Source of the DNA: Phreatobacter aquaticus
GTDB lineage: Bacteria > Pseudomonadota > Alphaproteobacteria > Rhizobiales > Phreatobacteraceae
DNA length: 64,000 nucleotides
Reading direction: 5' to 3'
Assembly (NCBI RefSeq): GCF_005160265.1
Contig: NZ_CP039865.1
Span: 1,078,828 to 1,142,827 of the forward strand
Shown here: piece after piece, positions 43,097 to 56,412 of the stretch
How the letters are laid out: every line of letters begins with the position of its first letter
Position numbering within the stretch: the first letter of the stretch is position 1
Position numbers and translations under genes: made by a program
Notes under the pieces: model-generated
Database searches by the model: none
Told to the model about the DNA's origin: nothing
What the model saw: the letters and a program-made list of their open reading frames with translations, nothing else

Positions 43097-43405
43097 GGTT
43101 CTAGTCCTTCATCGACGAACCTTGGCCAGGGAGCCCGGACCGGTCGTCTTCTTGGTTTGTCTTGCCGCCGGGAATGGCGGTTGAGAATGCCCGAAACCAT
43201 GACAGACGCAGACAAGCCGCGACATGCAGGAGTTCGGGACGCGGCTCAATGATCGAAATTGCCGGCCAAGTCAAGGAAATCCCGGCGCAGCTGACGGAAT
43301 TTGACGGTCGGCGACGGTTGCCGCTTGAACAGCAGCGTCGCTTCCGCTACATGCCGCTTCGCTTTACGACCGGAGGGCGCCCGCAAGGTGCCGTTCAGCG
43401 ACCGC
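43097..43405. promoter_or_regulatory. 309-bp region between rplU and tRNA-Ser
   Basis: No gene is convincing here. It must hold the leftward rplU promoter/leader and the rightward tRNA-Ser promoter. The rplU leader contains a short stem CCGCC/GGCGG (near 43160-43177) about 65 bp before the start, which could be a ribosomal-protein autoregulatory element, but no known L21 motif is proven. Confidence 0.4.
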
Positions 43406-43495
43406 GGAGAGGTGGCAGAGTGGTCGAATGCACCGCACTCGAAATGCGGCATACGGGCAACCGTATCGGGGGTTCGAATCCCTCCCTCTCCGCCA
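43406..43495 (+). tRNA. serU: tRNA-Ser(CGA)
   Basis: 90-nt tRNA with encoded CCA. Acceptor GGAGAGG pairs with CCTCTCC. The anticodon stem CCGCA/TGCGG encloses the loop CTCGAAA, giving anticodon CGA (serine codon UCG). A long variable arm ATACGGGCAACCGTAT is typical of class II tRNAs. T-loop GGTTCGAATC is present. The 3' end is the integration site of the island. Confidence 0.96.
43482..43495 (+). repeat. attL: left core of the island direct repeat
   Basis: CTCCCTCTCCGCCA, the last 14 nt of tRNA-Ser, exactly repeated at 56399-56412 in the same orientation. The neighbouring integrase and accessory content show it is the attachment site. Confidence 0.85.
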
Positions 43496-43544
43496 AACTC
43501 CCCCCTCAGACATCATCCTAACTGCGCCGATCTCCTCACGGAGT

Positions 43545-43560
43545 CGTTGATTTTTCAACG
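43545..43560. promoter_or_regulatory. Inverted repeat upstream of integrase
   Basis: CGTTGA-TTTT-TCAACG, perfect 6-bp arms, 86 bp before the integrase ATG. It may be an operator or a terminator for tRNA-Ser transcription since the native terminator was moved by integration. Confidence 0.45.
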
Positions 43561-43619
43561 AGATTCGCGCTACTGTCCTCACGTTACGTCACCGCTGATC
43601 GGGCTACCGCAGCTCGAAG

Positions 43620-43640
43620 GTGGGGCACAAAGTGGGGCAG
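43620..43640 (+). repeat. Paired GTGGGGCA boxes (left arm-type integrase site)
   Basis: GTGGGGCACAAAGTGGGGCA, two octamers GTGGGGCA 12 bp apart. A near-identical pair in the same orientation is at 56318-56338, just inside the other end. Such pairs beside tyrosine integrase genes are commonly the arm sites. Confidence 0.6.
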
Positions 43641-43645
43641 GCGAG

Positions 43646-44872
43646 ATGGCTCGGGCGCTGAACAAGCTGAGTGCGAAGGCGGTGGGCTCGCTCGTCAAGC
43701 AGCCGGGCACCCATTCTGACGGTGGTGGTCTCTACCTAAAGGTCGATGGAAACGGCGCTCGCTGGCTCTTCATGTTCAAGCGTAACGGTGAGAACCGACG
43801 CGAAATGGGGCTCGGCGGCGCGGTGGGCGCCAATGCGGTATCGCTTGCCGATGCCCGCGCGGCCGCTTCGGACGCCCGAGATCTGCTGGCCAACGGCATC
43901 GATCCCATCGCGGAGCGCAAGCGGCAGGGCCATCGGGCAGCTGCAGTGACATTCGGCGAGGCGGCGCTGGCGCATATCGAGCGCAAGCGCGGCGGCTGGA
44001 AGAATGCCAAGCACGGGCAGCAGTGGGGCAACAGCCTCCAGCAGCATGGGGCAAAGCTCTGGGCGATACCGGTCGCGGACGTCGACACAGAGGCAGTTCT
44101 CGCCTGCCTCCAGCCGATCTGGCTGAAGATCCCCGAGACCGCTTCACGCGTTCGGCAGCGGATCGAGGCCATACTCGATGCCGCCAAGGCATTGAAGTTG
44201 CGCGAAGGCGAAAACCCGGCGCGCCTGAAGGGCCATCTCGACCATCTGCTCGCTAAGGCCAAGAAGAGTGGTGCCGGACATCATGCGGCGTTGCCGTGGC
44301 AAGAGGTCCCAGCCTTCCTAGTCGATCTCCGCGAGCGCAAAGGGATGGCGCCGCGCGCGCTGGAGTTCCTGATCCTGACGGCCGGACGCACTGGCGAGGT
44401 TCTGGGGGCAACCTGGGCCGAGATCAATCTGAGGGAGCAGACCTGGCTGGTGCCGGCCGAGCGCATGAAGGCAGGCGTCGCGCACCGCGTGCCGCTGACC
44501 GATGCGGCTATTCAGCTCCTCAAATCCATCCGTCTTGAGGGTGCCGAACCATCGGATGCGGTGTTCCCCAGCCAGGACCTGAAGCGGCCGATGTCGAATA
44601 TGGCGCTGTTGCAACTCCTGAAGCGCATGAACGCGAATGACCGGACGACGGCGCACGGACTGCGCAGCTCCTTCCGCCAATGGGTCCAGGATAATCGTCC
44701 GAGCGATCGCGATGCGGCGGAGGCCGCACTTGCCCATCAGCTTGGTGACGACGTCGAGCGCGCCTATGCCCGATCCGACCTGTTCGCCCGCCGGATCGCG
44801 CTGATGGAAGGGTGGTCGGATTTCGTTGAAGGGGTCGCAGGGGCCAACGTGGTCCAGATGCGGCGAGCTTGA
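43646..44872 (+). CDS. int: P4-type tyrosine recombinase (island integrase)
   Basis: 408 residues. The N-terminal DUF4102 arm-binding domain has NKLSAKAVGSLVKQPGTHSDGGGLYLKV and ARWLFMFKRNGENRREMGLGG. The SAM-like core-binding domain lies around residues 100-190. The catalytic domain has TAGRTGEVLGATWAEINL (Arg I), HRVPLTDAAIQLLKS, AHGLRSSFRQWV (HxxR) and LAHQLGDDVERAYARSD (His/Trp position and Tyr nucleophile). It would cut and join at the tRNA-Ser 3' end. It starts 150 bp inside attL. A longer open frame extends upstream but its extra residues overlap the tRNA and are not coding. Confidence 0.94.
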   Translation: MARALNKLSAKAVGSLVKQPGTHSDGGGLYLKVDGNGARWLFMFKRNGENRREMGLGGAVGANAVSLADARAAASDARDLLANGIDPIAERKRQGHRAAAVTFGEAALAHIERKRGGWKNAKHGQQWGNSLQQHGAKLWAIPVADVDTEAVLACLQPIWLKIPETASRVRQRIEAILDAAKALKLREGENPARLKGHLDHLLAKAKKSGAGHHAALPWQEVPAFLVDLRERKGMAPRALEFLILTAGRTGEVLGATWAEINLREQTWLVPAERMKAGVAHRVPLTDAAIQLLKSIRLEGAEPSDAVFPSQDLKRPMSNMALLQLLKRMNANDRTTAHGLRSSFRQWVQDNRPSDRDAAEAALAHQLGDDVERAYARSDLFARRIALMEGWSDFVEGVAGANVVQMRRA

Positions 44873-44875
44873 TCC

Positions 44876-45547
44876 ATGCAGGAGGATGACGGGAACGCCG
44901 GCGTGTCGGCTGATTGGCAAGAGGACAAAGACGACGCTACCCTGAAACTTCGCAAAGAAGCGTTCTTGGAGCGGGATGCTGGCCCACCAGAGGACCCAGA
45001 CCAATGGTGGCTGCAAGCTCCGATCCTAGAGCACCATGAGAAACTGGTCAGCATTCTCTCGACGAGGATGAAAGCCGACGCCATAGCAGCGAGCGGGTTT
45101 GCGAGAGAGGTCCTAATCCTCGCATTTGAGCATCGCCTCGGCGTCAGCCTTTCAAGTCTGGAGATAGACCCCCGCCGAAAGCAGCATGATGAGACGTTGG
45201 CACTAATCAAACGCGTTGAAACGCCACTCCTGGAACGAGGAGCACCGCCAGCGCCACGGGACTATATCGACGCGGTCGCTGTCATGTGGTTTTGGGTCTT
45301 TGGACGGAAGCCGGGTTGGGCGCTGGACGCGACAACGCCATTCGTTGAGTGCTGTCAGATCGCTTTTGAAGCGGCCCACGGTGAGACCCGTGGGTTTACG
45401 CGCGACACATTCAAAGGAATGAGAACTCGATTGGACGAAACCGGCGCCTGGTCCAAAGCATGGCATCCACGGTTAAGGCCGTTCGCGGGATCTGGAGGGG
45501 ACGCGGATGTCACGACCGGGCATCTCGCGGACGAGGCCAGCTCGTAG
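44876..45547 (+). CDS. Hypothetical island protein downstream of int
   Basis: 223 residues, 3 bp after the integrase stop and probably co-transcribed. It begins with an acidic stretch (QEDDGNAGVSADWQEDKDD). A central helical block (ILEHHEKLVSILSTRMKADAIAASGFAREVLILAFEHRLGVSL) and DYIDAVAVMWFWVFGRKPGWALDATTPFVECCQIAFEAAHG follow. No known family is recognised. The C-terminus overlaps the convergent gene by 75 bp. Without a match it could be a structural, anti-repressor or defence protein. Confidence 0.6.
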   Translation: MQEDDGNAGVSADWQEDKDDATLKLRKEAFLERDAGPPEDPDQWWLQAPILEHHEKLVSILSTRMKADAIAASGFAREVLILAFEHRLGVSLSSLEIDPRRKQHDETLALIKRVETPLLERGAPPAPRDYIDAVAVMWFWVFGRKPGWALDATTPFVECCQIAFEAAHGETRGFTRDTFKGMRTRLDETGAWSKAWHPRLRPFAGSGGDADVTTGHLADEASS

Positions 45548-46063
45548 GTTTGCTTCAAACTCCGCGATCTTCTCCGCTGCACCCTGCTCAAGCTCAGGGA
45601 CGCGCTCACGCAGCTCTTTCTGACCTAGCCAGCGCAGCAGGCGGCTCAAGCTCCGTGGCGGCGGGCTGAACTGCGGAAATCGGTTGTGCGGCCGGGCCGC
45701 GCCGATTGCCAGCCGAAATCGATCCCACAACGGCAGTGGTGGGAGGGGCAGTTCGAACTGCCTGCGGAAGCCGGACACGAGGGCGCTGATCGATTGGTAG
45801 CTGTCGCCATGCCGGACGGTGACCCACCGCTCGCCGGCGATGAACTTCTCCCTCAGATCGTCGAGGTAGGATTGCGCAGCGGGAGTCGGCATGCCGTCGC
45901 GCCCCCGCGCCATCAACATGTTGCCACCATCGGTGAAGAAGACGCTGCCCATCCCGACCAAGCGAATCTCCTTCCGCTCCTCATAGGCGTGCTGGACCTT
46001 CACGAGTTCAGGGTCGCCTGGGTACAGGCTGCCGATTGGCGCGGGTTCGCGGGCTTCGGTCAT
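45473..46063 (-). CDS. Hypothetical island protein, opposite strand
   Basis: 196 residues. It starts EAREPAPIGSLYPGDPELVKVQHAYEERKEI and has a beta-rich segment RLVGMGSVFFTDGGNMLMARGRDG. An acidic helical region follows (WVTVRHGDSYQSISALVSGFRRQF), and the end is basic and Pro-rich. The pattern VFFTDGGNM and the even distribution of residues fit a real soluble protein; no family is recognised. It is convergent with the gene at 44876 and divergent from the AlpA-like gene. Confidence 0.55.
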   Translation of the reverse strand: MTEAREPAPIGSLYPGDPELVKVQHAYEERKEIRLVGMGSVFFTDGGNMLMARGRDGMPTPAAQSYLDDLREKFIAGERWVTVRHGDSYQSISALVSGFRRQFELPLPPLPLWDRFRLAIGAARPHNRFPQFSPPPRSLSRLLRWLGQKELRERVPELEQGAAEKIAEFEANLRAGLVREMPGRDIRVPSRSRERP

Positions 46064-46406
46064 GATTGCCTAGGCTGGAGTTCTGAAGGGTCAGGCACTC
46101 TAGCGACGGCGAGATTCCCCCATCAAGACCGCGCAACAGCTCCAATCCGCACAAATTCGAATCAGTCTGCTCGTTCCGATTCGGAGCATTGATCAATCGA
46201 TTGGGCCGAAGCGCGCCCGCAACCAAGGAGGCACCATTTCAGACCGAAGAACGGGGTCATGGAGTGTATCGAGGAACCGGTGCAGCGCCGCCTGCCTCAG
46301 TTTTCCAACGCTGCGGAATATACCCCCATCACACGAGGTCGCTCTGACCAGCCAGGACTCAACGTGACGGCCACCGAGCCGGATTGATTGAGAAACCTGA
46401 AGGGAC
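46064..46406. promoter_or_regulatory. 343-bp divergent intergenic region with operator-like palindromes
   Basis: Divergent control region between the unknown leftward gene and the AlpA-like gene. It contains CGAATC-14 nt-GATTCG (46158-46183) and two overlapping perfect palindromes, ATTGATCAAT (46188-46197) and CAATCGATTG (46194-46203). Likely regulator-binding sites for the HTH protein or another factor. No further gene is convincing. Confidence 0.5.
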
Positions 46407-46628
46407 ATGATGAACACCAACACCCCCATCACCGCCATTGCTACCAAGCCGGCGCGCCGCCTGATCGCCAAGACGGACGTGTGCGACGCCTACGTCATCT
46501 CGCCCGCGACGCTCGACCGCCTGATCCGCCATAAGGGCTTCCCGCACATCAAGATCGGCTCCCGCACGCTTTTCCGCGTTGAGGATGTCGAGGCCTTCTT
46601 CGCGGGACGTGTTCGCTGCAACTCCTAA
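46407..46628 (+). CDS. AlpA/excisionase-like helix-turn-helix protein
   Basis: 73 residues (first ATG, a second one follows directly). After a basic N-terminus come LIAKTDVCDAYVISPATLDRLIRHKGFPHIKIGSRTLFRVEDVEAFF, the HTH_17/MerR-like fold of recombination directionality factors and AlpA activators of P4-type integrases. GAAGGGAC precedes the start. It could control int expression or help excision; which of these is not shown. Confidence 0.82.
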   Translation: MMNTNTPITAIATKPARRLIAKTDVCDAYVISPATLDRLIRHKGFPHIKIGSRTLFRVEDVEAFFAGRVRCNS

Positions 46629-46806
46629 GCAGCCACGGGTAGGCCAATCCGGCATTTTTGCCACGAGACTGGCCTACTTCTCCCAACTCCCTGACGCCAC
46701 TCCGCGTCTCGGTCGCCCCCTGCACTAATGAAAGCGAGCCCGACGCCCCGCGACATTGTTGCGGGGCCGCCTCTCTCGAAAGCCGATCACGGAGACGGCA
46801 GGCCCC

Positions 46807-48444
46807 ATGTCCAAGCACCTGAAGCTCAACAAGACGAAGGTCAACCAGTCCGGCCGCGAGAGCCTCGGAAAGCGTGCCGAGCGTGTCAGCGCATTCCATA
46901 TCCGCGTCTACGCCTGGTTGACCAACAGCCCGCGCTGGAAGGCTGCGACGCCGCTGGCACGCGCGGCCCTGTTTGAGTTCATGGCGTGTGACAACGGCAA
47001 CAATAACGGCCAGATCTATATGGGCAGCCGCGATCTTGCCGGTCGTCTGGGGGCCCGGGGACCTGCGACGGCCGATCGCGCAATTCGCTCTTTGCGCGAG
47101 AACGGCCTCCTCATCCTGGCGCGTGAGGGCAGCAAGGGACCTAGGGGCGAGCGGGCGAGCGAATGGCTCCTGCCCTTCATCAAGGACAGCCGGCCGGGCG
47201 CGCCGCCGACTCCTTTCGCCGCGGAGTGGAACAAGGCCCGAAAGCACCATCAGGAGTTCGCGAAGCTGGACGTCGAGACGATGCGCACGCCGGCCTGGCG
47301 TCATCTGTCTCCGACGGCTCGCCTCCTGCTCGTCGCGCTGATCTTCACGTCCAAGCGCCGAAATCCCATCGAGATCAGCAACGACGAGGCGGGCCAGCTG
47401 ATCGGTGCCAGCGACGATACCGGCCGGCGCGCCCTCAACGAGCTTCAGGGGAAGGGCTTCATCGAGAACAAGGTGCTCGGCCGTGCGCTGGTCGGGCCCC
47501 GCGTCACGGCGACCTACACCATCGACTTGTTCCAAACCCCTGCCGGCGTGCTGTTCACCCCGGCCGCTGCCCGCTATCGCCTCTGGGGGCCGGGCAAGGA
47601 CTTTCCCGTCTACCACACCTCAAAGAAGAAATCGGCCTCAGATCCGGTGCACCTCGGCCTCATGAGCGGAACACTGGAGTATGGGTCCGGCCTCAAAAGC
47701 GGAACACTGCAAGGCGATCTGACTCCATTCTCGGCCTCAAAAGCGGAACACACTCATCTGTCCATCTGTCCGGCGGAGGCCGAGGAGGCGCCGATTTCTC
47801 CGATGACGGCCGAACCGATCGCCCTCACCGAGGACGAGCACGCTAGGGCGCTGATCGAGGAGTATCGCTCGCCGCGACGTGAGGCCATCGTCGCGATCAA
47901 GCCTGTGGTCGCTGCTCCGCGCCCCTACCAGATCATTGCGGACTTCCTCGGCGAGATCGCCATCGAGCCGTATCTCAAGTGGGGGCTCCAAAGCCACTGC
48001 CAGCCGGGAGCTGTCTGCGAACGTGCGGGAACTGAACGCCTCAAGCGCGAGGCGCACCGTGCTCTCAAGGAGCGCTTGCGGACTTTCATGCCCGTCCGGG
48101 TCTATCGTCGCCTGCTCCTCATCACCGTGGCGGACGTCGAGGCCGCCATGCGTGTCGAGACATTGGGCGATATGCACCCATATGCGATCAGCTTGGCCAA
48201 CGAGCGTATCGTGGCGCGCCTGGTCGCTATAGCCGAAGACGAAAATGTTGACGGACGCCAGGCCTTTCTCGCCGAGACGGAGCGCCGGATGCTGGAGGCC
48301 TCGGCCTACGAGGGCGCCGACCTGCCAGGGATCGGCCGCTGGTTCGAGGGGCTGATGGCGCATCTCGCCGCCAATGGCGGTCAGCCCGTTTCGACGCTGC
48401 TGGATCTGCTGAGAGCGCGAGACGCGGTGCGCATCGGGTTTTGA
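46807..48444 (+). CDS. Double winged-helix protein, replication-initiator-like
   Basis: 545 residues. Two similar winged-helix-like blocks are seen: MGSRDLAGRLGARGPATADRAIRSLRENGLL (about residues 74-104), and ISNDEAGQLIGASDDTGRRALNELQGKGFI (about 190-220) after a LSPTARLLLVALIFTSKR helix. This duplicated layout resembles iteron-type Rep proteins. A central linker (290-330) is encoded by the phased repeats at 47634-47752. The C-terminal half is helical (LKREAHRALKERLRTFMPVRVYRRLLLITVADVEAAMRV). Identity as a replication initiator is inference; a transcription factor is possible. Confidence 0.6.
   Translation: MSKHLKLNKTKVNQSGRESLGKRAERVSAFHIRVYAWLTNSPRWKAATPLARAALFEFMACDNGNNNGQIYMGSRDLAGRLGARGPATADRAIRSLRENGLLILAREGSKGPRGERASEWLLPFIKDSRPGAPPTPFAAEWNKARKHHQEFAKLDVETMRTPAWRHLSPTARLLLVALIFTSKRRNPIEISNDEAGQLIGASDDTGRRALNELQGKGFIENKVLGRALVGPRVTATYTIDLFQTPAGVLFTPAAARYRLWGPGKDFPVYHTSKKKSASDPVHLGLMSGTLEYGSGLKSGTLQGDLTPFSASKAEHTHLSICPAEAEEAPISPMTAEPIALTEDEHARALIEEYRSPRREAIVAIKPVVAAPRPYQIIADFLGEIAIEPYLKWGLQSHCQPGAVCERAGTERLKREAHRALKERLRTFMPVRVYRRLLLITVADVEAAMRVETLGDMHPYAISLANERIVARLVAIAEDENVDGRQAFLAETERRMLEASAYEGADLPGIGRWFEGLMAHLAANGGQPVSTLLDLLRARDAVRIGF
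47634..47752 (+). repeat. Four helically phased direct repeats inside the Rep-like gene
   Basis: Near-identical 20-mers start at 47656 (GGCCTCATGAGCGGAACACT), 47689 (GGCCTCAAAAGCGGAACACT) and 47733 (same but final A), with a degraded copy at 47634 (GGCCTCA....CGG..CAC). The spacings are 22, 33 and 44 bp, all multiples of 11. Copies are read in two different codon frames, so selection is at the DNA level. Confidence 0.8.
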
Positions 48445-48881
48445 ACGGGCCGATCGCTAAACGATAGGCGTTTGCCGGCGTTGCGAGAGTCGCTGAGTCC
48501 GATTGCGAAGGGTGCCCGCTGGGGCAGTAGCGAGCGTCCGCCGGTGCCCGCCCTCGACTCCTGTAGGACGAGCCGGTTGGCCAGCTAAGAGCGCCGGATT
48601 TTACGAGTATCGCGCGCCCTATATCGCGCTTGGCTCAGATCGCAAATGATCGTCGCCGCCGGACCGCCTTTGTGTTGACGGGTGTTGACGGGTGTTGACG
48701 CCTGAACGCGTACCACAGCTAGGTAGGGGACGTGGCTGAATGGTGTGCCCTCGCGCGTTACGCGCTCGCCCATCACAGGCGCCCATGAGCCGAGAGCAAC
48801 TGTGGGATTGAGGATCGGCTAGCCATGCTGGTATCAAGCACGTACGGACGCGTGTGAGGCAGCTGTTCCTGCGGAGGCTAC
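48445..48881. promoter_or_regulatory. 437-bp region upstream of the restriction operon
   Basis: No convincing gene. It holds three tandem 10-bp repeats GTGTTGACGG at 48672-48700, each with a -35-like TTGAC, and a small palindrome GCGCGTTACGCGC near 48753-48765. It is the natural place for the hsd promoter and its control. Confidence 0.5.
48672..48700 (+). repeat. Three tandem GTGTTGACGG repeats
   Basis: Exact 10-bp period, third copy ends GTGTTGACG. Ten base pairs is one helical turn, so a protein could line up on one face. Each copy holds TTGAC, which resembles a sigma-70 -35 element. It lies 182 bp before the hsdR start. Confidence 0.75.
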
Positions 48882-51236
48882 ATGGACCGACGGGATAAGC
48901 TGCGCCTAAGCGAGATTGATATTTGCGACCTTTTCATTACGCCCGCGATCAAGAGCGCCGGCTGGGATCCGCTGACACAAATCCGACGTGAAGTGACGCT
49001 TACACCTGGTCCTGTCATTGTTCGTGGTAATCTGTCTTCAAGGAACAAAAAGAAGAAGAAATTTGCAGACTATGTCCTGTCTTGGAAGCTATCGCTTCCG
49101 ATCGCTATCGTTGAAGCCAAGGACAACAATTTTTCGGTTTCCCACGGTTTGCAGCAAGCCCTTGGCTATGCAGACATCTTACAACTGCCGAGCGCATTTA
49201 GCTCAAACGGGGATGGTTTCGCGTCGCACAACAAAACAGCAGCGGCGGGTGAGGACATAGAGACAGAGTTTCCGCTCGATCATTTTCCTCCGCCACACGA
49301 GCTGTGGAGCCGATACAAGACGTTTCACAATATCGCGGATCAAGAAGTCGCGCTTGTTGAACAGCCCTACCATGTCGATTCTGACGGCAAGGAGCCTCGC
49401 TACTATCAAGTGGAGGCAATCAACCGAACCGTAGAGGCAATCGCTAAAGGGCAGAAGCGCATCCTGCTCGTGATGGCGACCGGTACGGGGAAAACTTACA
49501 CGACATTCCAGATCATTTGGAGACTTTGGAAGGCCAGAAAAGCGAAGCGAATCCTGTTCCTCGCCGACAGAAACATCCTCGTCGATCAAACGCTGGTCAA
49601 TGACTTCAAGCCCTTTGGCGCGGTCATGACCAAGGTGAAAAATCGGAAGGTCGATCCGGCCTATGAGGTCCACCTCGCGCTGTATCAGGCGCTGACCGGT
49701 CAGGAGGAATCCGATAAGATTTTTAAGTCCGTTTCGCGTGACTTCTTCGATCTTATCGTTGTGGACGAATGTCATCGGGGAAGCGCGGCCGAGGATTCAG
49801 CGTGGCGTGAAATCCTCGACTATTTCAATGGCGCGGTTCAAATCGGTATGACGGCCACGCCCAAGGAGACAGAGTACGTTTCCAACATCACCTACTTTGG
49901 CGACCCGGTTTACACCTACACGCTCAAGCAGGGCATCGAAGACGGCTTCCTGGCGCCGTATAAGGTGATCCGTATCGATATCGACCGGGATGTCGAGGGC
50001 TGGACCCCGCCACCCGGAATGGTCGATGACCTCGGCAACCAGGTTGAGGAACGCGAATACAATCAGAGGGATATGGATCGCATTCTGGTCCTCAACCAGC
50101 GAACCAAGCTCGTTGCAGAACGTGTGATGAAGCTGCTTCGGGCAACGGACCCGATGTCGAAGACCATCATCTTTTGCGAGGACATCGACCACGCAGAGCG
50201 GATGCGCAAGGCGATTGTCAACGCAGCTGGCGACTTGGCTCGCAACAACTCGAAATACGTCATGCGTATTACGGGTGACAGTACCGAAGGCAAGGCGGAG
50301 TTGGACCGGTTCATCGACCCCGAAGAGCCATATCCCGTTATCGCCACCACCTCTCAGCTCCTTACGACGGGTGTAGACGCCAAAACCTGCAAGCTGATCG
50401 TCCTCGACCGCACGATCAACTCGATGACCATGTTCAAGCAAATTATTGGGCGTGGCACACGGATCGACGAGGACAATAACAAGTTCTTTTTTACGATCAT
50501 GGATTTTAAGAAGGCCACCGAGTTGTTCCGAGATCCGGCCTTCGATGGCGAGCCGGTTGTCATCTACGAGCCCGGCAACGACGATGATCCTGTGCCACCT
50601 GATCCAGAGCCGGAGGATGAAGATGCCCCCGGTGGCGATGGCTCGGACGATGAACCTGGAGTCACCAAAATTCGCATTAGCGGTGTGGATGCGCAGATCA
50701 TCGCCGAGCAGATCCAATATGTTGGGCCAGATGGCCAACTGATCACTGAATCCTATCGCGAGTTCGCCCGTAAGCAGATCATCTCGGAGTATCGGTCGCT
50801 GGATCAGTTCATCCAGAAATGGCGCGTGAGCGATCGCAAAAAGGCGATCATCGACGAGTTGGAAGAGCATGGCATCGTGCTCTCCAACCTGGCGGACGAG
50901 GTTGGCAAGGACATCGGCGATTTCGATCTGCTGTGCCACATTGCCTACGATCAGCCGCCACTCACGCGTCGAGAGCGGGCCGAGAAGGTCAAGAAACGGA
51001 ACTATTTCGCCAAATACGGCGACAAGGCTAGAGCCGTTCTGGAAGGGCTGCTCGACAAATACGCGGATGAAGGCATAACCACGATTGAGGAAACGAAGGT
51101 GCTTCGGCTGACGCCCTTTGCGGACATCGGGACCCCGACTGAGATCATCAACGGGGCGTTTGGCGGCAAGGCGAAGTACGAGCAGGCCCTCAACGAACTA
51201 GAAGATCAGATTTACGGGCAGGCATCGAACGAATGA
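48882..51236 (+). CDS. hsdR: Type I restriction enzyme R subunit (HsdR, EcoEI-like)
   Basis: 784 residues. The N-terminal nuclease domain has FADYVLSWKLSLPIAIVEAK (D...ExK, about residues 61-80). The helicase motor has PRYYQVEAINRTVEAIAKGQKRILLVMATGTGKTYT (Q motif and Walker A near 200), FDLIVVDECHRGSAAEDSAW (DECH near 293), VQIGMTATPKE (III), and TINSMTMFKQIIGRGTRIDED (VI, near 520). An acidic linker (PGNDDDPVPPDPEPEDEDAP) leads to a C-terminal EcoEI_R_C-type domain. All catalytic residues are intact. GGAGG precedes the ATG; the stop overlaps hsdM (ATGA). Confidence 0.95.
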   Translation: MDRRDKLRLSEIDICDLFITPAIKSAGWDPLTQIRREVTLTPGPVIVRGNLSSRNKKKKKFADYVLSWKLSLPIAIVEAKDNNFSVSHGLQQALGYADILQLPSAFSSNGDGFASHNKTAAAGEDIETEFPLDHFPPPHELWSRYKTFHNIADQEVALVEQPYHVDSDGKEPRYYQVEAINRTVEAIAKGQKRILLVMATGTGKTYTTFQIIWRLWKARKAKRILFLADRNILVDQTLVNDFKPFGAVMTKVKNRKVDPAYEVHLALYQALTGQEESDKIFKSVSRDFFDLIVVDECHRGSAAEDSAWREILDYFNGAVQIGMTATPKETEYVSNITYFGDPVYTYTLKQGIEDGFLAPYKVIRIDIDRDVEGWTPPPGMVDDLGNQVEEREYNQRDMDRILVLNQRTKLVAERVMKLLRATDPMSKTIIFCEDIDHAERMRKAIVNAAGDLARNNSKYVMRITGDSTEGKAELDRFIDPEEPYPVIATTSQLLTTGVDAKTCKLIVLDRTINSMTMFKQIIGRGTRIDEDNNKFFFTIMDFKKATELFRDPAFDGEPVVIYEPGNDDDPVPPDPEPEDEDAPGGDGSDDEPGVTKIRISGVDAQIIAEQIQYVGPDGQLITESYREFARKQIISEYRSLDQFIQKWRVSDRKKAIIDELEEHGIVLSNLADEVGKDIGDFDLLCHIAYDQPPLTRRERAEKVKKRNYFAKYGDKARAVLEGLLDKYADEGITTIEETKVLRLTPFADIGTPTEIINGAFGGKAKYEQALNELEDQIYGQASNE

Positions 51237-52699
51237 GCAACATCTCGGGTATCATCAAGTCCATTCAGGACATCATGCGCAAAGACGCCGGCGTCGATGG
51301 CGATGCGCAGCGCATCGGTCAGATGGTCTGGATGTTCTTCCTCAAGATTTACGATGACCGGGAAGTCGAACTGGAACTCGTCGAAGACGATTATAAATCC
51401 CCCTTGCCGGAGCATCTGCGCTGGCGGAGCTGGGCGGCCAACAAGGAAGGGCTGACGGGCGAAGGCCTCGCCGAGTTCGTCAACCTTCAACTCTTCCCAA
51501 AGCTGAAAACGCTCGTGCCGCCACCCGGCGATCTTGGACGCAAAGCGTCGGTTGTTCGTGATGTCTTCGAAGACGCGAACAATTTCATGAAGAACGGTAC
51601 ACTGATCCGGCAAGTGATCAACAAGATCAACGAGATCGATTTCAACAGCCGCGAAGACCGACACACCTTTGGTGCGATCTACGAGCAGATTCTCAAGGAC
51701 TTGCAAAGCGCGGGAAATGCCGGCGAGTTCTACACACCACGCGCCGTGACAAAGTTCATCATCAACCGGCTGAACCCGAAGCTCGATGAGATCGTGTTCG
51801 ATCCGGCCTGTGGCACGGGTGGCTTTCTGTCCTGCGCCGTGGAGCACAAGCGAAAGTTGGTGAAGTCGCCGACCGATGAGGAAACGCTCCGGCGCACCAT
51901 TCATGGCGTGGAGAAGAAGGCTCTCCCGCACATGCTTTGCGTGACGAATATGATCCTTAACGGGATTGACACGCCATCGGGCATCAAGCACGGCAACACG
52001 CTTTCAAAGCCGTATCGGGATTACGGCGACAAGGATCGCGTCCATGTCATCGCGACCAACCCGCCTTTCGGCGGCATGGAAGAGGATGGCATCGAGAACA
52101 ACTTCCCTTCGCATCTGCGCACGCGGGAAACAGCCGATCTCTTCATGGCGCTGATCATCAAACTGCTGCGCTCACATGGTCGCGCGGCTGTGGTGCTGCC
52201 TGATGGCTTCCTCTTCGGCGAAGGCACGAAATCGACTCTCAAGCAGCAGCTTCTGGAGGAGTGCAACCTCCATACGATCGTGCGCCTGCCAAATGGCGTT
52301 TTTGCACCCTATACCGGCATCAAGACGAACATCCTGTTCTTCACCAAGGGCGTTCCGACCAAGGATATCTGGTTCTACGAGCACCCCTACCCGGAAGGCG
52401 TGACGAGCTACAATAAGACCAAGCCGATGCAGTTCGAAGAGTTTCAGACCGAACAAGATTGGTGGGGCACCGAGTCGGATGGCTTCAAGGCGCGCAAGCC
52501 GACCGAACAGGCCTGGAAGGTGAGCGCGGCTGAGATTGCTGCCAATGGCCATAATCTCGATCGGAAGAACCCTCATCAGGCGGCAGCGGTAGACCACGAT
52601 CCGGAGGCACTGTTGATCGCCTACGGCGACACGCAGAAATCCATCCAGTCCTTGCGCGACGAGCTGAAGGCGATCCTCTCCGACGCCCTGTCACGGTGA
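51233..52699 (+). CDS. hsdM: Type I restriction-modification methyltransferase (HsdM)
   Basis: 488 residues. An HsdM N-terminal helical domain (IIKSIQDIMRKDAGVDGDAQRIGQMVWMFFLKIYDDRE) is followed by the N6-adenine methylase core. Motif I is FDPACGTGGFLSCAVEH near residue 195, and motif IV is IATNPPFGGMEEDG near 275. RAAVVLPDGFLFGEGTKSTLKQQLLE and FTKGVPTKDIWFYEHPYPEG complete the fold. It modifies one adenine in each half-site set by HsdS. Overlaps hsdR and hsdS by 4 bp on both sides. Confidence 0.96.
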   Translation: MSNISGIIKSIQDIMRKDAGVDGDAQRIGQMVWMFFLKIYDDREVELELVEDDYKSPLPEHLRWRSWAANKEGLTGEGLAEFVNLQLFPKLKTLVPPPGDLGRKASVVRDVFEDANNFMKNGTLIRQVINKINEIDFNSREDRHTFGAIYEQILKDLQSAGNAGEFYTPRAVTKFIINRLNPKLDEIVFDPACGTGGFLSCAVEHKRKLVKSPTDEETLRRTIHGVEKKALPHMLCVTNMILNGIDTPSGIKHGNTLSKPYRDYGDKDRVHVIATNPPFGGMEEDGIENNFPSHLRTRETADLFMALIIKLLRSHGRAAVVLPDGFLFGEGTKSTLKQQLLEECNLHTIVRLPNGVFAPYTGIKTNILFFTKGVPTKDIWFYEHPYPEGVTSYNKTKPMQFEEFQTEQDWWGTESDGFKARKPTEQAWKVSAAEIAANGHNLDRKNPHQAAAVDHDPEALLIAYGDTQKSIQSLRDELKAILSDALSR

Positions 52700-54420
52700 G
52701 CGACATGGCAAACGTTGCAGACATTCTGACCGACAACCTGGACATCTGGACGAGCGCGATTGAGCGTCGGTCCACGGCAGGACGTGGGAGATCGAAGAAA
52801 TTCAGCCTCTACGGCATTGAGAAGCTGCGTGCGCTCATTCTGGATTTGGCCGTGCGCGGAAAGTTGGTTCCGCAGGACCCAAATGAAGAGCCCGCGTCGG
52901 TGCTATTGGAGAGCATAGCGAAAGACCGCAAAACTCGGTTGAAACCGAGAACGGCAGATTTTCGCGCTGCACCAAAGATACTGAATAGGACCCTCCCAAA
53001 CGGCTGGTGTATTGCTCGTCTTGATTGTCTTGCGAATTCCCAAGCTGGGTTCGCGTTCAAATCAAACGACTTCAATGAGATTGGGGCAGGTCTTCCACTG
53101 ATTCGTATTCGCGATGTGGGGCTTCAATTTTCTGGCACATACTACAGCGGCGAGTATCGTGAAGAGTTTGTCGTCACCGAGGGTGACTACCTGATCAGCA
53201 TGGATGGTGAGTTTCGGGTGGCAGTTTGGACCAATGGGCCCGCGCTACTGAATCAACGAGTTTCTCGTCTGCAATTCTATTCCGATAAAATCGCAAAACA
53301 GTATGTGGTAATTGATCTGCAAAAGCAGCTGTCGAAGCTACAAGGCGTCAAAGCCTACACGACAGTTGACCATCTATCTGGAAAGCAGATTTCGGAAGCT
53401 GAGATTGCGCTTCCTCCCCTAGCCGAGCAGCATCGGATCGTCGCGAAGGTCGATGAATTGATGGCCCTGTGCGATCGGCTGGAAGCGCAGACCTACGATG
53501 CGATCGAGGCGCATGAGCTACTGGTCGGCAACCTCCTCGCCACATTGCCGAGAAGCCAGAACGCCGAGGAACTGGCCGAGAATTGGGCGCGCATTGAAAC
53601 CCATTTCGACACGCTCTTGACCACCGAAGCCAGCGTCGATCAGCTGAAGCAGACCATTCTGCAACTCGCTGTGATGGGCAAACTCGTCCCGCAGGACCCG
53701 AACGATGAACCGGCGTCGGAGCTCCTTAGCAGGATAGCTGCCGCAAAAAGCCGTATGATTTCAATTGGAAAGCTTAAGTCGACGAAGTCGCCTCCACCGA
53801 TTAGGGCCAACGAAAGACCGTTTCAATTGCCGGTCGCTTGGCAATGGTGTCGCCTTAGTGAAGCGATCGACGTCAGAGATGGTACGCACGATTCTCCGAA
53901 GGACGCCACAGGCAACGAGACTTTCCCTCTCGTAACGAGCAAAGATTTTAAGAATGGGAAAATTGATTTTGAAAATGCCCGACGTATATCTGCTGAAGAC
54001 CATTTTATTATATCAAAGCGGTCCCTAGTTGAGCGAGATGATATTCTGTTTTCGATGATAGGAGGAAATTTAGGAAATCAGGTGCAGGTCAAGACAGACG
54101 AACAATTCAGCGTAAAAAATGTGGCGTTGTTTAAGTATTACGATCGAAATATGACATTACCAGAATTTATTAAGATTTTTTTAGAGAATATAGCATTCGA
54201 TCTGCAGATAAAGGCATCGGGTGGGGCGCAGCCGTTTGTTTCACTGGGTTATCTGAGGGCCGTTATTTTTGCATTACCGCCCGTCGAGGAACAACGGCGT
54301 ATCGTCGCTAAGGTCAAAGAATTATTCCGCCACCTTGATTTGATACGCGAAGCTTTTAATTGCACTCGTGTAGCGCAGGTAAGCTTTGCTGACGCTATCG
54401 CTTCCAAAGCCGTGTCTTAA
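52696..54420 (+). CDS. hsdS: Type I restriction-modification specificity subunit (HsdS), mosaic
   Basis: 574 residues from a GTG overlapping hsdM's stop. The two target-recognition domains follow conserved N-terminal and linker units. Unit one is LRALILDLAVRGKLVPQDPNEEPASVLLES (near 45); unit two is LKQTILQLAVMGKLVPQDPNDEPASELLSR (near 318). Both TRDs end with LPPLAEQHRIVAKVDELMALCDRLE and LPPVEEQRRIVAKVKELFRHLDLI. The second TRD is encoded by AT-rich DNA (about 35% GC in parts of 53940-54200) beside high-GC conserved segments, suggesting the TRD was exchanged. No frameshift is seen; the frame is complete. Confidence 0.95.
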   Translation: MSDMANVADILTDNLDIWTSAIERRSTAGRGRSKKFSLYGIEKLRALILDLAVRGKLVPQDPNEEPASVLLESIAKDRKTRLKPRTADFRAAPKILNRTLPNGWCIARLDCLANSQAGFAFKSNDFNEIGAGLPLIRIRDVGLQFSGTYYSGEYREEFVVTEGDYLISMDGEFRVAVWTNGPALLNQRVSRLQFYSDKIAKQYVVIDLQKQLSKLQGVKAYTTVDHLSGKQISEAEIALPPLAEQHRIVAKVDELMALCDRLEAQTYDAIEAHELLVGNLLATLPRSQNAEELAENWARIETHFDTLLTTEASVDQLKQTILQLAVMGKLVPQDPNDEPASELLSRIAAAKSRMISIGKLKSTKSPPPIRANERPFQLPVAWQWCRLSEAIDVRDGTHDSPKDATGNETFPLVTSKDFKNGKIDFENARRISAEDHFIISKRSLVERDDILFSMIGGNLGNQVQVKTDEQFSVKNVALFKYYDRNMTLPEFIKIFLENIAFDLQIKASGGAQPFVSLGYLRAVIFALPPVEEQRRIVAKVKELFRHLDLIREAFNCTRVAQVSFADAIASKAVS

Positions 54421-54425
54421 GCCCC

Positions 54426-56264
54426 ATGCGCCTGAAATCGGTTCTCATCAGCCAGTACAAGAACCTCAAAAACTTTACGCTGACATTTGAGGGCGATAGC
54501 TTCATCGATATTTTCGTTGGTAAGAACGGCTCGGGAAAATCCAACTTTCTCGAAGCCCTGATTGAAATTTTTGACCACGTTTACGGCTTCACGGCGAGCG
54601 GTGTTGGCCCAGGGTTCGAATACGAGATCGCATGGGATATCGGCGGCAAGACCACGACGCTCCGTTGGCACGGCGGACAGATGTTCATCAACGGCGTCGT
54701 GCGACAACAGCTCGGCAAGACGCCGATGCCAGTCAACATCATCGTCTATTATTCCGGCCAGAACGACACTGTTGCGGCGCTGATCCGTCGATACCGCGAC
54801 ACATATCGGCGCTCGGTGAGGAAGGCCAATGTCGCCGAAAGCCCGCGTTTCATCGGCATCGGGCCGGACTACAAGACCTTGCTTTTGGCCTTGATGCTGA
54901 TGCTCCCTGAGGCCTCGCAAGCCCGGGAGTTCCTGCGCATTAAGCTCGGCATTGAGGCAACGGGCGGAACAACCCGGCTGGCGCTCCGCAGGCCGACAGT
55001 TGCTCACCGAACCAGATATTTCGACCCGCTAGACAACACGCAGTTGTTCTGGGGCGTCAAAGGCATCGCCCGGACATTCCTCGACCAGCTGATGCTCTGC
55101 ATCGTTGGAGGTTTCACGCCCGCATCGCTCTATGACCGCGCCACTGACACCTATGAGCTTGGTATCGATGTCATCAAATTCCGCGAGGTTTTCGCGGCTC
55201 TGCCGCCTGTCGAGGTGTTTTGTGAGTTCAACGCACTAAGGGCGCTCAACATGATCGCGGATATCTCAATCCCGGTTCGGTTGGCGGCCAACGCTGAGGT
55301 GTCATCTCGTGCCTTCAGCGACGGGCAATTCCAATCCGTCTACCTCTTCGCGATTTCCGAGCTGTTCAAGGATCGCGAATGCATCACGCTGCTGGACGAG
55401 CCAGACGCCTTTCTTCATCCGGAATGGCAGTTCGACTTTCTCCACCAGACGCTTGCGATCTCCGAGCAGGGTGCACGAACAAACCACATCCTGATGAGCA
55501 GCCATAGCGCCTCGACAATCGCTGCGAAGGTCGAATGCCGGATCAGGCAGATTGAATTCATAGGCGGAAGAACCGAAGCGCGGGAAAAGGGCAGGGGCGA
55601 GCTGATCAAGTCACTGTCAGCAGGGCTGATCACGTTCTCGGAGAAAGAAGCGGCACTCAGCATCGACCGGGTGCTCAAGAACACCACCCAGCCCGTGTTG
55701 TTCACAGAAGGCATCTCCGATGTGATAATCCTGCGGACGGCTTGGGATTGCACGTTCCCCGGACAAGATTGCCCGTTTGAAATCGAGCAAGCTTTCGACT
55801 GCGCCTTCCTGCGCAATCTCATGAAGCGGCAGTCTCTCTATGACGGGAACCAGGGCCGAAAATTTTTTGCACTCTTCGATTTCGACGGTGCCTACCAAGA
55901 TTGGTCGCAACTCGGTGATCTCATCGAGCCCGATATCGAAAAGTGCCTTACCGTCAAGCGACGGAATTGCGAGGGATACGCAATGCTCCTGCCAGTACCG
56001 GCAGACCTTAGCATTCGCAATCAAGTATGGAATGCCAATGCAAACCGGACGTTCGAGGGGGAGTCACGGCTGAGCATTGAGCTTCTATTGAAAGACACCC
56101 CCGGCATCGATCAGCATTTTGCGGTGGACGTAAACGACAGGGCTGGTTGGATTAAGTTCAATGGGGACAAGCTGAGGTTCGCGGCTGAGGTCGTGCCGCA
56201 AATCCCGCCCCAGCATCTCATTGTGTTCAAGCCAATCTTCGATTTCGTTCTTTCGCGGATTTAG
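54426..56264 (+). CDS. OLD-like ABC-ATPase with C-terminal TOPRIM domain
   Basis: 612 residues, 5 bp after hsdS. The N-terminal ATPase has FVGKNGSGKSNFLEAL (Walker A, residues 31-46), an RRxxDTYRRS helical arm, an SDGQFQSVYLFAISELF signature-like helix near 297, ECITLLDEPDAFLHPEWQFDFL (Walker B, near 317) and LMSSHSASTIAAKVE (H-loop, near 357). The C-terminal third fits TOPRIM: VLFTEGISDVIIL (the metal-site Glu, near 424) and FFALFDFDGAYQDW (DxD-like, near 480). The layout is that of OLD/Gabija-A nucleases. Being in the hsd operon makes a defence role likely; the activity itself is inferred. Confidence 0.82.
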   Translation: MRLKSVLISQYKNLKNFTLTFEGDSFIDIFVGKNGSGKSNFLEALIEIFDHVYGFTASGVGPGFEYEIAWDIGGKTTTLRWHGGQMFINGVVRQQLGKTPMPVNIIVYYSGQNDTVAALIRRYRDTYRRSVRKANVAESPRFIGIGPDYKTLLLALMLMLPEASQAREFLRIKLGIEATGGTTRLALRRPTVAHRTRYFDPLDNTQLFWGVKGIARTFLDQLMLCIVGGFTPASLYDRATDTYELGIDVIKFREVFAALPPVEVFCEFNALRALNMIADISIPVRLAANAEVSSRAFSDGQFQSVYLFAISELFKDRECITLLDEPDAFLHPEWQFDFLHQTLAISEQGARTNHILMSSHSASTIAAKVECRIRQIEFIGGRTEAREKGRGELIKSLSAGLITFSEKEAALSIDRVLKNTTQPVLFTEGISDVIILRTAWDCTFPGQDCPFEIEQAFDCAFLRNLMKRQSLYDGNQGRKFFALFDFDGAYQDWSQLGDLIEPDIEKCLTVKRRNCEGYAMLLPVPADLSIRNQVWNANANRTFEGESRLSIELLLKDTPGIDQHFAVDVNDRAGWIKFNGDKLRFAAEVVPQIPPQHLIVFKPIFDFVLSRI

Positions 56265-56317
56265 GAAGCTACGCGCTATCAGGCTTAGATCCAGCACCCC
56301 CTAAACGCAAAGCGTGA

Positions 56318-56338
56318 GTGGGGCAACGAGTGGGGCAA
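56318..56338 (+). repeat. Paired GTGGGGCA boxes (right arm-type integrase site)
   Basis: GTGGGGCAACGAGTGGGGCA, matching the pair at 43620-43640 in sequence, spacing and orientation, 80 bp inside attR. Confidence 0.6.
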
Positions 56339-56398
56339 ACAACCAGCCGCAGGAAAAAAGTGAGTGGTTGCAGATATATAAGGAGCATATTTGGCGGA

Positions 56399-56412
56399 CT
56401 CCCTCTCCGCCA
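56399..56412 (+). repeat. attR: right core of the island direct repeat
   Basis: CTCCCTCTCCGCCA, identical to the tRNA-Ser 3' end. Beyond it the flanking DNA must be the original sequence downstream of the tRNA. Confidence 0.85.

What the first reader, a model, noticed from the sequence alone, without database searches (positions are those of the whole stretch)
48882..56264. Type I restriction operon extended by an OLD-like ATPase/TOPRIM nuclease
hsdR, hsdM and hsdS overlap by 4 bp each, and the next gene follows only 5 bp later. That gene joins an ABC-type ATPase to a TOPRIM-like end, the layout of OLD and GajA. OLD-family proteins are known alone, with UvrD-like helicases (Gabija), retrons or in PARIS-like pairs. 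A fixed link with type I restriction may be a distinct composite defence, for example a backup that acts when phage blocks restriction.
Basis: partly seen in the sequence, partly recalled or inferred. Interest (0 to 1): 0.72.

Follow-up and report, generated by a model that had tools for sequence, protein, structure and literature searches.

The report
Restriction operon with built-in guard nuclease
A bacterial DNA-restriction operon carries a fourth gene, joining an ATP-driven switch to a nuclease-like domain, that stands beside such operons in nearly every relative examined and whose nuclease part has been swapped between relatives, so it is probably a second line of defence against viruses that block restriction.

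Summary
The link is real from the ATPase's side. Of 48 other loci of this family, 41 have HsdS upstream (34 overlapping or within 12 nt), one is a remnant in frame with HsdR, five are cut by a contig end, one shows no HsdS; 0 of 40 control OLD-TOPRIM loci showed HsdS in up to 5 kb. From the restriction side the gene is optional (2 of 38 EcoAI-type HsdR matches). The ATPase groups with other hsdS-linked ATPases that use separate nucleases (Septu PtuA/PtuB; TIGR04435 plus partner) rather than with OLD/GajA; support is moderate and OLD kinship is not rejected (p-AU 0.077). And TOPRIM halves have been exchanged between near-identical ATPases, breaking just after the H-loop SSHSA. Best reading: an embedded guard like PARIS or PrrC, firing an abortive nuclease when restriction is blocked. 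Trigger, nuclease activity and substrate are inferred. A new variant of a known kind.

The parts
48882..51236 (+). hsdR, type IB (EcoAI/FtnUII family) restriction and translocation subunit, 784 aa
   Evidence: NF046051 1144.9 bits, cut-off 550; ResIII and EcoEI_R_C
51233..52699 (+). hsdM, N6-adenine methyltransferase subunit, 488 aa; ATGA overlap with hsdR
   Evidence: N6_Mtase 254 bits, HsdM_N; junction
52696..54420 (+). hsdS, two-domain specificity subunit, 574 aa, GTG start; GTGA overlap with hsdM
   Evidence: Methylase_S, 2 stretches; PADLOC Specificity_I 529 bits; junction
54426..56264 (+). ABC-type ATPase fused to a C-terminal TOPRIM domain, 612 aa; proposed guard/effector
   Evidence: AAA_15, AAA_21; PtuA1 PDLC00293 162 bits; 40-row alignment A1; models
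54426..55505 (+). ATPase part, residues 1-360: Walker A G32-x-N34-G35-x-G37-K38-S39, signature FSDGQFQS 297-304, Walker B LLDEPD 322-327, H-loop SSHSA 358-362
   Evidence: conserved columns in the 40-row alignment; motif names are recalled, not from a call
55506..56261 (+). TOPRIM part, residues 361-612: TEG-x-x-D (427-432) and FDFD (484-487); the segment exchanged between relatives
   Evidence: discordant trees and break after SSHSA
43406..43495 (+). tRNA-Ser (CGA), the island's attachment gene
   Evidence: ARAGORN
43301..44872 (+). tyrosine integrase of the carrying island (the mechanical TTG start overlaps the tRNA; the true start probably lies downstream)
   Evidence: Arm-DNA-bind_3, Phage_int_M, Phage_integrase
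56399..56412 (+). right copy of a 14-bp repeat, CTCCCTCTCCGCCA; the left copy 43482-43495 is the tRNA 3' end

Best explanation
This is a four-gene type IB restriction operon with an embedded guard. HsdRMS restrict and methylate in the usual way. The fourth protein is an ABC ATPase that stays silent in a healthy cell and, when a phage or plasmid disables or bypasses the restriction complex (for example with a DNA-mimic inhibitor), switches on its fused TOPRIM nuclease, which damages tRNA or DNA and stops the infected cell. Shown: the operon, its conservation, the conserved TOPRIM residues, other hsdS-linked ATPases with separate nuclease-type partners (PtuB; a TIGR04435 partner), and exchange of the TOPRIM half between near-identical ATPases. 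Inferred: nuclease activity, silencing, the trigger (possibly read by the variable insert at about residues 181-260) and the substrate.
For: 41 of 48 loci have HsdS upstream, 34 overlapping or within 12 nt; the loci were chosen by the ATPase alone, and five of the other seven are cut by a contig end. 0 of 40 control OLD loci show HsdS in up to 5 kb. In 30 operons ATPase distances track HsdR (r 0.67) and HsdM (r 0.62), 0 of 2000 permutations as high. TOPRIM residues invariant in 40 of 40. Six of six distant plasmid hits are next to hsdS, with PtuB confirmed in the three partners scanned; TIGR04435 ATPases follow hsdS with another partner gene in L089, L091, L094 and L095. TOPRIM exchange: L018/L030 93% identical before residue 365, 41% after; two isolates, L017/L032, 87% and 38%; each half's data reject the other's clade (p-AU 0.0016 and 1.4e-7). 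Known guards work this way: PrrC inside a type I operon and PARIS are called RM guardian systems in PMC12707154 (passages and section 72 read).
Against: No functional data. 36 of 38 EcoAI-type HsdR matches do without the gene in the DNA examined. HsdS of linked (15 read) and unlinked (11 read) operons shows no distinguishing feature by eye. The distance correlation may reflect shared descent of the hosts, and is weaker than HsdR-HsdM (0.96). The TOPRIM assignment is weak outside its motif region. L039 shows no HsdS in 577 nt upstream.
Confidence: 0.5

Rival explanations
1. Follow-up nuclease: the ATPase-TOPRIM protein acts on DNA ends or translocation products made by HsdR and destroys the restricted DNA, for example when the phage blocks RecBCD. 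It is a second step of restriction, not a suicide guard.
For: OLD and Gabija TOPRIM proteins are described as DNA nucleases (review PMC10568477, abstract and section 7 read); Gabija and RecBCD antagonism (PMC12407980, start of abstract in a listing). Close co-transcription with HsdR fits, as do HNH partners (PtuB) in sister systems.
Against: The nearest solved fold for the TOPRIM part alone is from PARIS, whose AriB cuts tRNA, but that match is weak. EcoAI-type operons exist without it.
Confidence: 0.22
2. Independent abortive-infection gene that merely shares the operon's promoter and mobility; it senses an unrelated phage trigger and has no working tie to restriction.
For: The slot after hsdS in other EcoAI-type operons holds unrelated genes with weak Abi_C or NucS_C matches or DUF3800, and other cassettes lie between hsd genes (RhuM, SLFN_AlbA_2, HNH, YhcG). 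DarTG embedded in a type I system is published (PMC12255303, passages).
Against: A free-standing module should also occur alone, yet no clearly free copy was seen in 48 loci (L039 is doubtful), whereas 40 of 40 OLD control loci showed no HsdS. ATPase and Hsd distances correlate.
Confidence: 0.22
3. On descent (not exclusive with the others): a plain OLD-family (GajA-like) protein recruited next to hsdS, rather than a separate hsdS-linked lineage.
For: Domain layout, Foldseek top hit OLD 6p74, HHalign to OLD TOPRIM; a tree with OLD as one clade is not rejected (p-AU 0.077).
Against: Best profile is PtuA1, 162 bits against 38.7 for GajA; best tree separates them; PF20469 is not matched significantly in any of 40 TOPRIM domains.
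Confidence: 0.2

Closest known systems
hsdS-linked Septu (PtuA1 PDLC00293 + PtuB)
   Same: ATPase directly after hsdS; best profile match of the window ATPase part; same side of the best tree
   Different: Nuclease is a separate PtuB protein, absent here; here a TOPRIM domain is fused to the ATPase
TIGR04435 restriction system-associated AAA family ATPase
   Same: hsdS-linked ATPase, NCBI-named for its restriction context; same side of the best tree
   Different: 64 bits against a cut-off of 300; separate partner of 340-360 aa, with a weak HNH-type match in two of three scanned
PARIS (AriA + AriB)
   Same: ABC ATPase controlling a TOPRIM nuclease; counters anti-restriction (PMC12409363 passages; PMC12707154); best solved-structure match by sequence is AriA, E 2.9e-5
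   Different: Two genes with a DUF4435-type nuclease (that label is recalled); no DUF4435 match here; found in a satellite phage hotspot, not a type I operon
PrrC in the EcoprrI operon
   Same: Toxin gene embedded in a type I operon and kept silent by the R-M complex until phage T4 infects (PMC3874165 passages; PMC12707154)
   Different: PrrC is an anticodon nuclease in a type IC operon; its Pfam ATPase family (AAA_13, recalled) was not returned for the window protein
OLD / Gabija GajA / retron Eco8 effector
   Same: Single-chain ABC ATPase plus TOPRIM; among the full-model Foldseek hits
   Different: No HsdS beside 40 of 40 control OLD loci; no UvrD helicase or reverse transcriptase partner seen here; ATPase on another branch of the best tree
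OLD-ABC/TOPRIM backup effectors in BREX
   Same: Published as backup suicidal effectors beside a modification-based system (PMC12839542 passages)
   Different: BREX host system; those loci were not compared with this family here

Membership tests
Type IB (EcoAI) restriction-modification | HsdR over the EcoAI family cut-off | tested here: met
   NF046051 1144.9 bits, cut-off 550
Type IB (EcoAI) restriction-modification | Adjacent hsdM and hsdS | tested here: met
Type IB (EcoAI) restriction-modification | Working restriction and methylation | not testable with these tools
   needs bench work
OLD family nuclease | ABC ATPase with C-terminal TOPRIM, EG-x-x-D and D-x-D motifs | tested here: met
   40 of 40 rows
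OLD family nuclease | Match to the OLD-like TOPRIM model PF20469 | tested here: not met
   3 of 40 members, best E 0.11
OLD family nuclease | ATPase branches with OLD/GajA | tested here: inconclusive
   best tree places it elsewhere; alternative p-AU 0.077
Gabija | GajB UvrD-like helicase next door | tested here: not met
   no UvrD-type helicase among the upstream neighbours scanned; downstream ORFs past the island end were only read by eye, as PHP- and peptide-transporter-like on the other strand
PARIS | DUF4435 AriB effector | tested here: not met
   no PF14491 match in G000 or in any of 40 TOPRIM domains
Septu | PtuA-type ATPase | tested here: inconclusive
   PDLC00293 162 bits, residues 1-367 only; hsdS-linked PtuA of L068 and L070 score 651 and 689, L069 124
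Septu | PtuB HNH partner | tested here: not met
   only 134 nt lie between the gene and the island's right repeat
TIGR04435 restriction system-associated AAA ATPase | Score over curated cut-off 300 | tested here: not met
   64.2 bits
R-M guard (functional class of PrrC and PARIS) | Activated by inhibition of the R-M complex or by an anti-restriction protein | not testable with these tools
   inference only

The most novel reading that the evidence does not exclude
Type I restriction operons have a dedicated slot behind hsdS for an ABC-ATPase guard with exchangeable nuclease warheads: either separate (PtuB, TIGR04435 partner) or a fused TOPRIM that is swapped like a cassette by recombination at the codons of the SSHSA motif, much as HsdS swaps its recognition domains, so that phages face a changing effector behind a constant sensor.
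Probability: 0.35. Interest if true: 0.78.

Novelty: new variant of a known kind. Interest (0 to 1): 0.58.

Why it matters
Type I restriction is among the first known bacterial defences, yet how it is backed up when phages block it is known in few cases. A widespread operon with the guard built in, sister versions that use other nucleases, and natural hybrids that exchange only the nuclease half would make it directly testable what senses inhibition and what the nuclease does. In the PADLOC profiles scanned here the gene scores only as a partial PtuA or GajA-type match, so its tie to the restriction operon is easily missed.

Tried and rejected
Chance linkage: rejected by 48 loci against 40 control loci. 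The control took 40 of the 62 PF20469 matches (the best 40 less one, plus one weaker); 11 of the 40 stretches were cut short by a contig end, and my HsdS profile, built from 44 HsdS mostly of this family, may miss distant HsdS. A first control with about 1.5 kb of flank was too short upstream and was redone. Linkage obligate for the restriction system: rejected. Of 38 EcoAI-type HsdR matches (E <= 1e-100) only G000 and G556 have this ATPase; the other 36 were fetched, several cut by contig ends; 21 of 36 show an HsdS (in L183 and L184 upstream of hsdR), none the TOPRIM-fused ATPase, one (L180) another ABC ATPase. Metagenome chimeras as the source of the TOPRIM exchange: rejected because isolates show it too (L017/L032). 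A special HsdS feature in linked operons: none seen by eye in 15 linked and 11 unlinked. DUF4435 identity of the TOPRIM: not supported. Empty-site check of the island: led nowhere; the flanking gene has no match beyond short pieces in 11 other genomes of the genus. Viral contigs: one relative. Phage records: one short match. Among 60 relatives only two weak matches. The 2020 ABC-ATPase survey that others cite for R-M-linked ABC ATPases is not held, so it may already list this family; I saw only citations of it. Ten paper searches listed, by title and start of abstract, no paper on an hsdRMS-OLD or hsdRMS-Septu operon; some lists were capped at 15-20 of up to 400 papers, and most subscription papers are not held.

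Rows left out: L040, L042, L046, L048, L049, L050, L052 (cut or remnant proteins) and the later L081 and L086 are not in the 40-row alignment; 18 of its 40 rows, 14 of 40 OLD proteins and one GajA-like protein of L158 (called so from its UvrD neighbour) went into the 64-row tree; 30 operons with all four proteins, window included, went into the distance test. Of 24 plasmid records, 9 were looked at and are R-M-linked, 7 were looked at and are not, 8 were not looked at.
Full report
What is there. hsdR, hsdM and hsdS form an EcoAI-type (type IB) operon; HsdR scores 1144.9 bits against a cut-off of 550. Start and stop codons overlap as ATGA and GTGA, and the fourth gene starts five bases after the hsdS stop. 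The operon lies in an island of lower G+C (58.0%, flanks 66.9 and 65.2%) bounded by tRNA-Ser and a 14-bp repeat of its 3' end and headed by a tyrosine integrase. The genome is a single contig of 4.97 Mb; it is unnamed, and the closest named relative of the fourth protein is from Methylobacterium (85%).

Anatomy of the fourth protein. Residues 1-360 are an ABC-type ATPase (AAA_15 and AAA_21 over cut-off). Residues 401-612 fold with high confidence on their own (pLDDT 94.7, pTM 0.91). That this end is a TOPRIM domain is supported by motifs invariant in 40 of 40 rows and by a profile-profile match to OLD proteins that aligns both motifs (probability 74.7%, E 2.6e-5; DUF4435 proteins 15%; HsdR, HsdM, HsdS, PtuA, PtuB and TIGR04435-partner profiles 0.1 to 5.7%). 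Against it: no Pfam match in the window protein, PF20469 in only 3 of 40 members at best E 0.11, and weak Foldseek hits for the domain alone: two PARIS chains of AriB-like length first, at E 8.3e-3 and 0.02 and TM 0.28, then unrelated proteins, with OLD and GajA lower. The full model's best match is the OLD nuclease 6p74, E 1.4e-10 over 562 columns, but with TM 0.25 and with PtuA, SMC and Rad50 heads close behind; the full model's pTM is 0.62.

Is the link real? A pattern-based scan of genome contigs with the ATPase alone as query gave 46 loci, relatives down to about 36% identity; a viral contig (L081) and a panel genome (L086) add two. Of these 48, 41 have HsdS upstream on the same strand: 34 overlapping or within 12 nt, three at 58-146 nt, four with one extra gene between. 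In L016 the HsdS is a 130-aa fragment and in L037 it is fused to HsdM. Five loci have under 90 nt upstream or start inside the gene. L050 carries the first part of HsdR in one frame with the ATPase from about residue 115, which looks like a deletion remnant of such an operon; L039 shows no HsdS in 577 nt. Control: 40 of 62 loci of proteins with the OLD-like TOPRIM model, with up to 5 kb on each side, had no HsdS match; four had an HsdR or HsdM match. The family is rare: full-length in 2 of 398 genomes of the phylum and in 1 of 289 of the class, with only the first few candidates of each genome scored.

The link is one-sided. 37 of 249 genomes have an EcoAI-type HsdR at E <= 1e-100, 34 of them over the cut-off, 38 matches. 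Apart from G000 and G556, 36 were fetched; 21 of 36 show an HsdS, none has this ATPase, one (L180) has a different ABC ATPase behind hsdS. In several, other genes stand behind hsdS (weak NucS_C or Abi_C, DUF3800). So the place behind hsdS is a slot for accessory genes, and this ATPase is one occupant that was hardly seen elsewhere.

Who are its kin? The best PADLOC profile is PtuA1 PDLC00293, 162 bits over residues 1-367; two more PtuA profiles, then AriAB at 55 and, further down, GajA at 38.7 follow. A protein search of 72,556 plasmids found six distant relatives (23-35% identity), 6 of 6 directly beside hsdS. Of three of their ATPases scanned, two are plain PtuA1 (651 and 689 bits) and one, L069, scores 124; the following protein is PtuB in the three scanned (L068, L070, L072). 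L069 has no PtuB annotated behind it but a sub-threshold OLD-like TOPRIM match (20.5 bits, cut-off 23.2). TIGR04435 ATPases, which NCBI names restriction system-associated, also follow hsdS with a partner of 340-390 aa (L094, L095, L089, L091); in L093 hsdR and hsdM are annotated but no hsdS. Of ten panel loci, the window excluded, seven are hsdS-linked (G556 among them; L090 with a gap of 0.7 kb) and three (L083, L085, L088; weak hits) show no hsd match to my reference set. Seven plasmid PtuA-like loci have no hsd gene annotated within 4-5 kb, in a gene table known to be incomplete. In a tree of 64 ATPases over 339 columns, the 18 TOPRIM-fused rows are one group (100/100), and all 32 rows of hsdS-linked families (L093 and contig-edge L012 and L026 included) lie on one side of a branch with moderate support (81/96), while OLD/GajA, with one DUF4435-type fusion inside, form another (99/94); free PtuA rows are scattered, and several branches are long. 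Holding the TOPRIM-fused rows with OLD costs 17 log units, p-AU 0.077, not a rejection.

Effector exchange. Within the 40 rows the two halves tell different histories. L018 and L030 are 93% identical before residue 365 and 41% after; their DNA aligns at 91.6% over the first 1.1 kb of the gene, then falls to about half, and aligns again downstream (88% over 2.4 kb). Two isolates, Desulfobulbus elongatus (L017) and Geobacter argillaceus (L032), are 87% and 38%. The break falls just after the H-loop motif SSHSA; by eye about three sequence types follow it, and the TOPRIM residues are intact in all 40. The TOPRIM data reject the ATPase clade (p-AU 0.0016) and the ATPase data reject the TOPRIM clade (1.4e-7); these clades were chosen after seeing the quick trees. 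Another variable stretch, residues 181-260 (30-47% mean pairwise identity against 79-90% at 301-340; residues 61-100 are also variable, 36-40%), is a candidate sensor.

How it may work. Distances of the ATPase follow those of HsdR (r 0.67), HsdM (0.62) and HsdS (0.57) in 30 operons, 0 of 2000 permutations as high, though HsdR-HsdM is tighter (0.96) and host descent is not removed. With a nuclease-type domain joined to an ATPase, near-obligate linkage to a restriction complex and diversifying effectors, the simplest model is a guard that fires when restriction is blocked. A 2025 review groups PrrC, which is embedded in a type I operon, and PARIS, which detects Ocr, as RM guardian systems (PMC12707154; passages and section 72 read). 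For BREX, OLD-ABC/TOPRIM pairs are described as backup suicidal effectors (PMC12839542; passages read). The trigger, the silent state, nuclease activity and the substrate (tRNA or DNA) are inferred.

Novelty. The concept of guards and of OLD-type ABC ATPases beside R-M-like systems is in print. What the ten searches of the held library did not list is this single-chain family tied to type IB operons, its kinship with hsdS-linked PtuA and TIGR04435, or the TOPRIM exchange; the 2020 ABC-ATPase survey could not be read. I rate it a new variant of a known kind.

Noticed in passing
window 43406-56412: Integrative island: tRNA-Ser(CGA), tyrosine integrase, 14-bp repeat of the tRNA 3' end at 43482-43495 and 56399-56412, lower G+C than flanks.
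   Followed up: partly
window 46756-48444: 562-aa protein with sub-threshold HTH matches (HTH_Crp_2, HTH_36), by eye like a plasmid-type replication or regulatory protein; its gene holds three near-copies of a 20-nt repeat (47655, 47688, 47732).
   Followed up: no
L015:2806-3579, L022:9224-9991, L086:6574-7341: A 255-257-aa protein family without Pfam match (77-93% alike) sits between hsdS and the ATPase; by eye it holds a D...QLK stretch as in some restriction-fold nucleases.
   Followed up: partly
L081:6984-7850: In the viral contig a DUF3800 protein takes the place between hsdS and the ATPase, and an Mrr-type nuclease follows the ATPase.
   Followed up: partly
L050:4849-6504: HsdR N-terminus in one frame with the ATPase from about residue 115: a natural deletion remnant of the operon, or an assembly error.
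   Followed up: partly
L018, L021, L033, L041 between hsd genes: Other cassettes within the same operons: RhuM, SLFN_AlbA_2, an HNH protein, YhcG.
   Followed up: partly
L044:11851-15474: A 1207-aa protein overlapping the ATPase end, with relatives in L018, L030, L047; only a weak pP_pnuc_1 match.
   Followed up: no
L165:4082-5188 and L168:4166-5269: EcoAI-type operons without the ATPase carry a 367-368-aa protein with a weak NucS_C match 10 nt after hsdS, a possible alternative nuclease in the same slot.
   Followed up: partly
L069:7001-8707: Flammeovirga plasmid: another ATPase directly after hsdS, without PtuB annotated, with a sub-threshold OLD-like TOPRIM match; perhaps a second, separate TOPRIM-bearing occupant of the slot.
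   Followed up: partly
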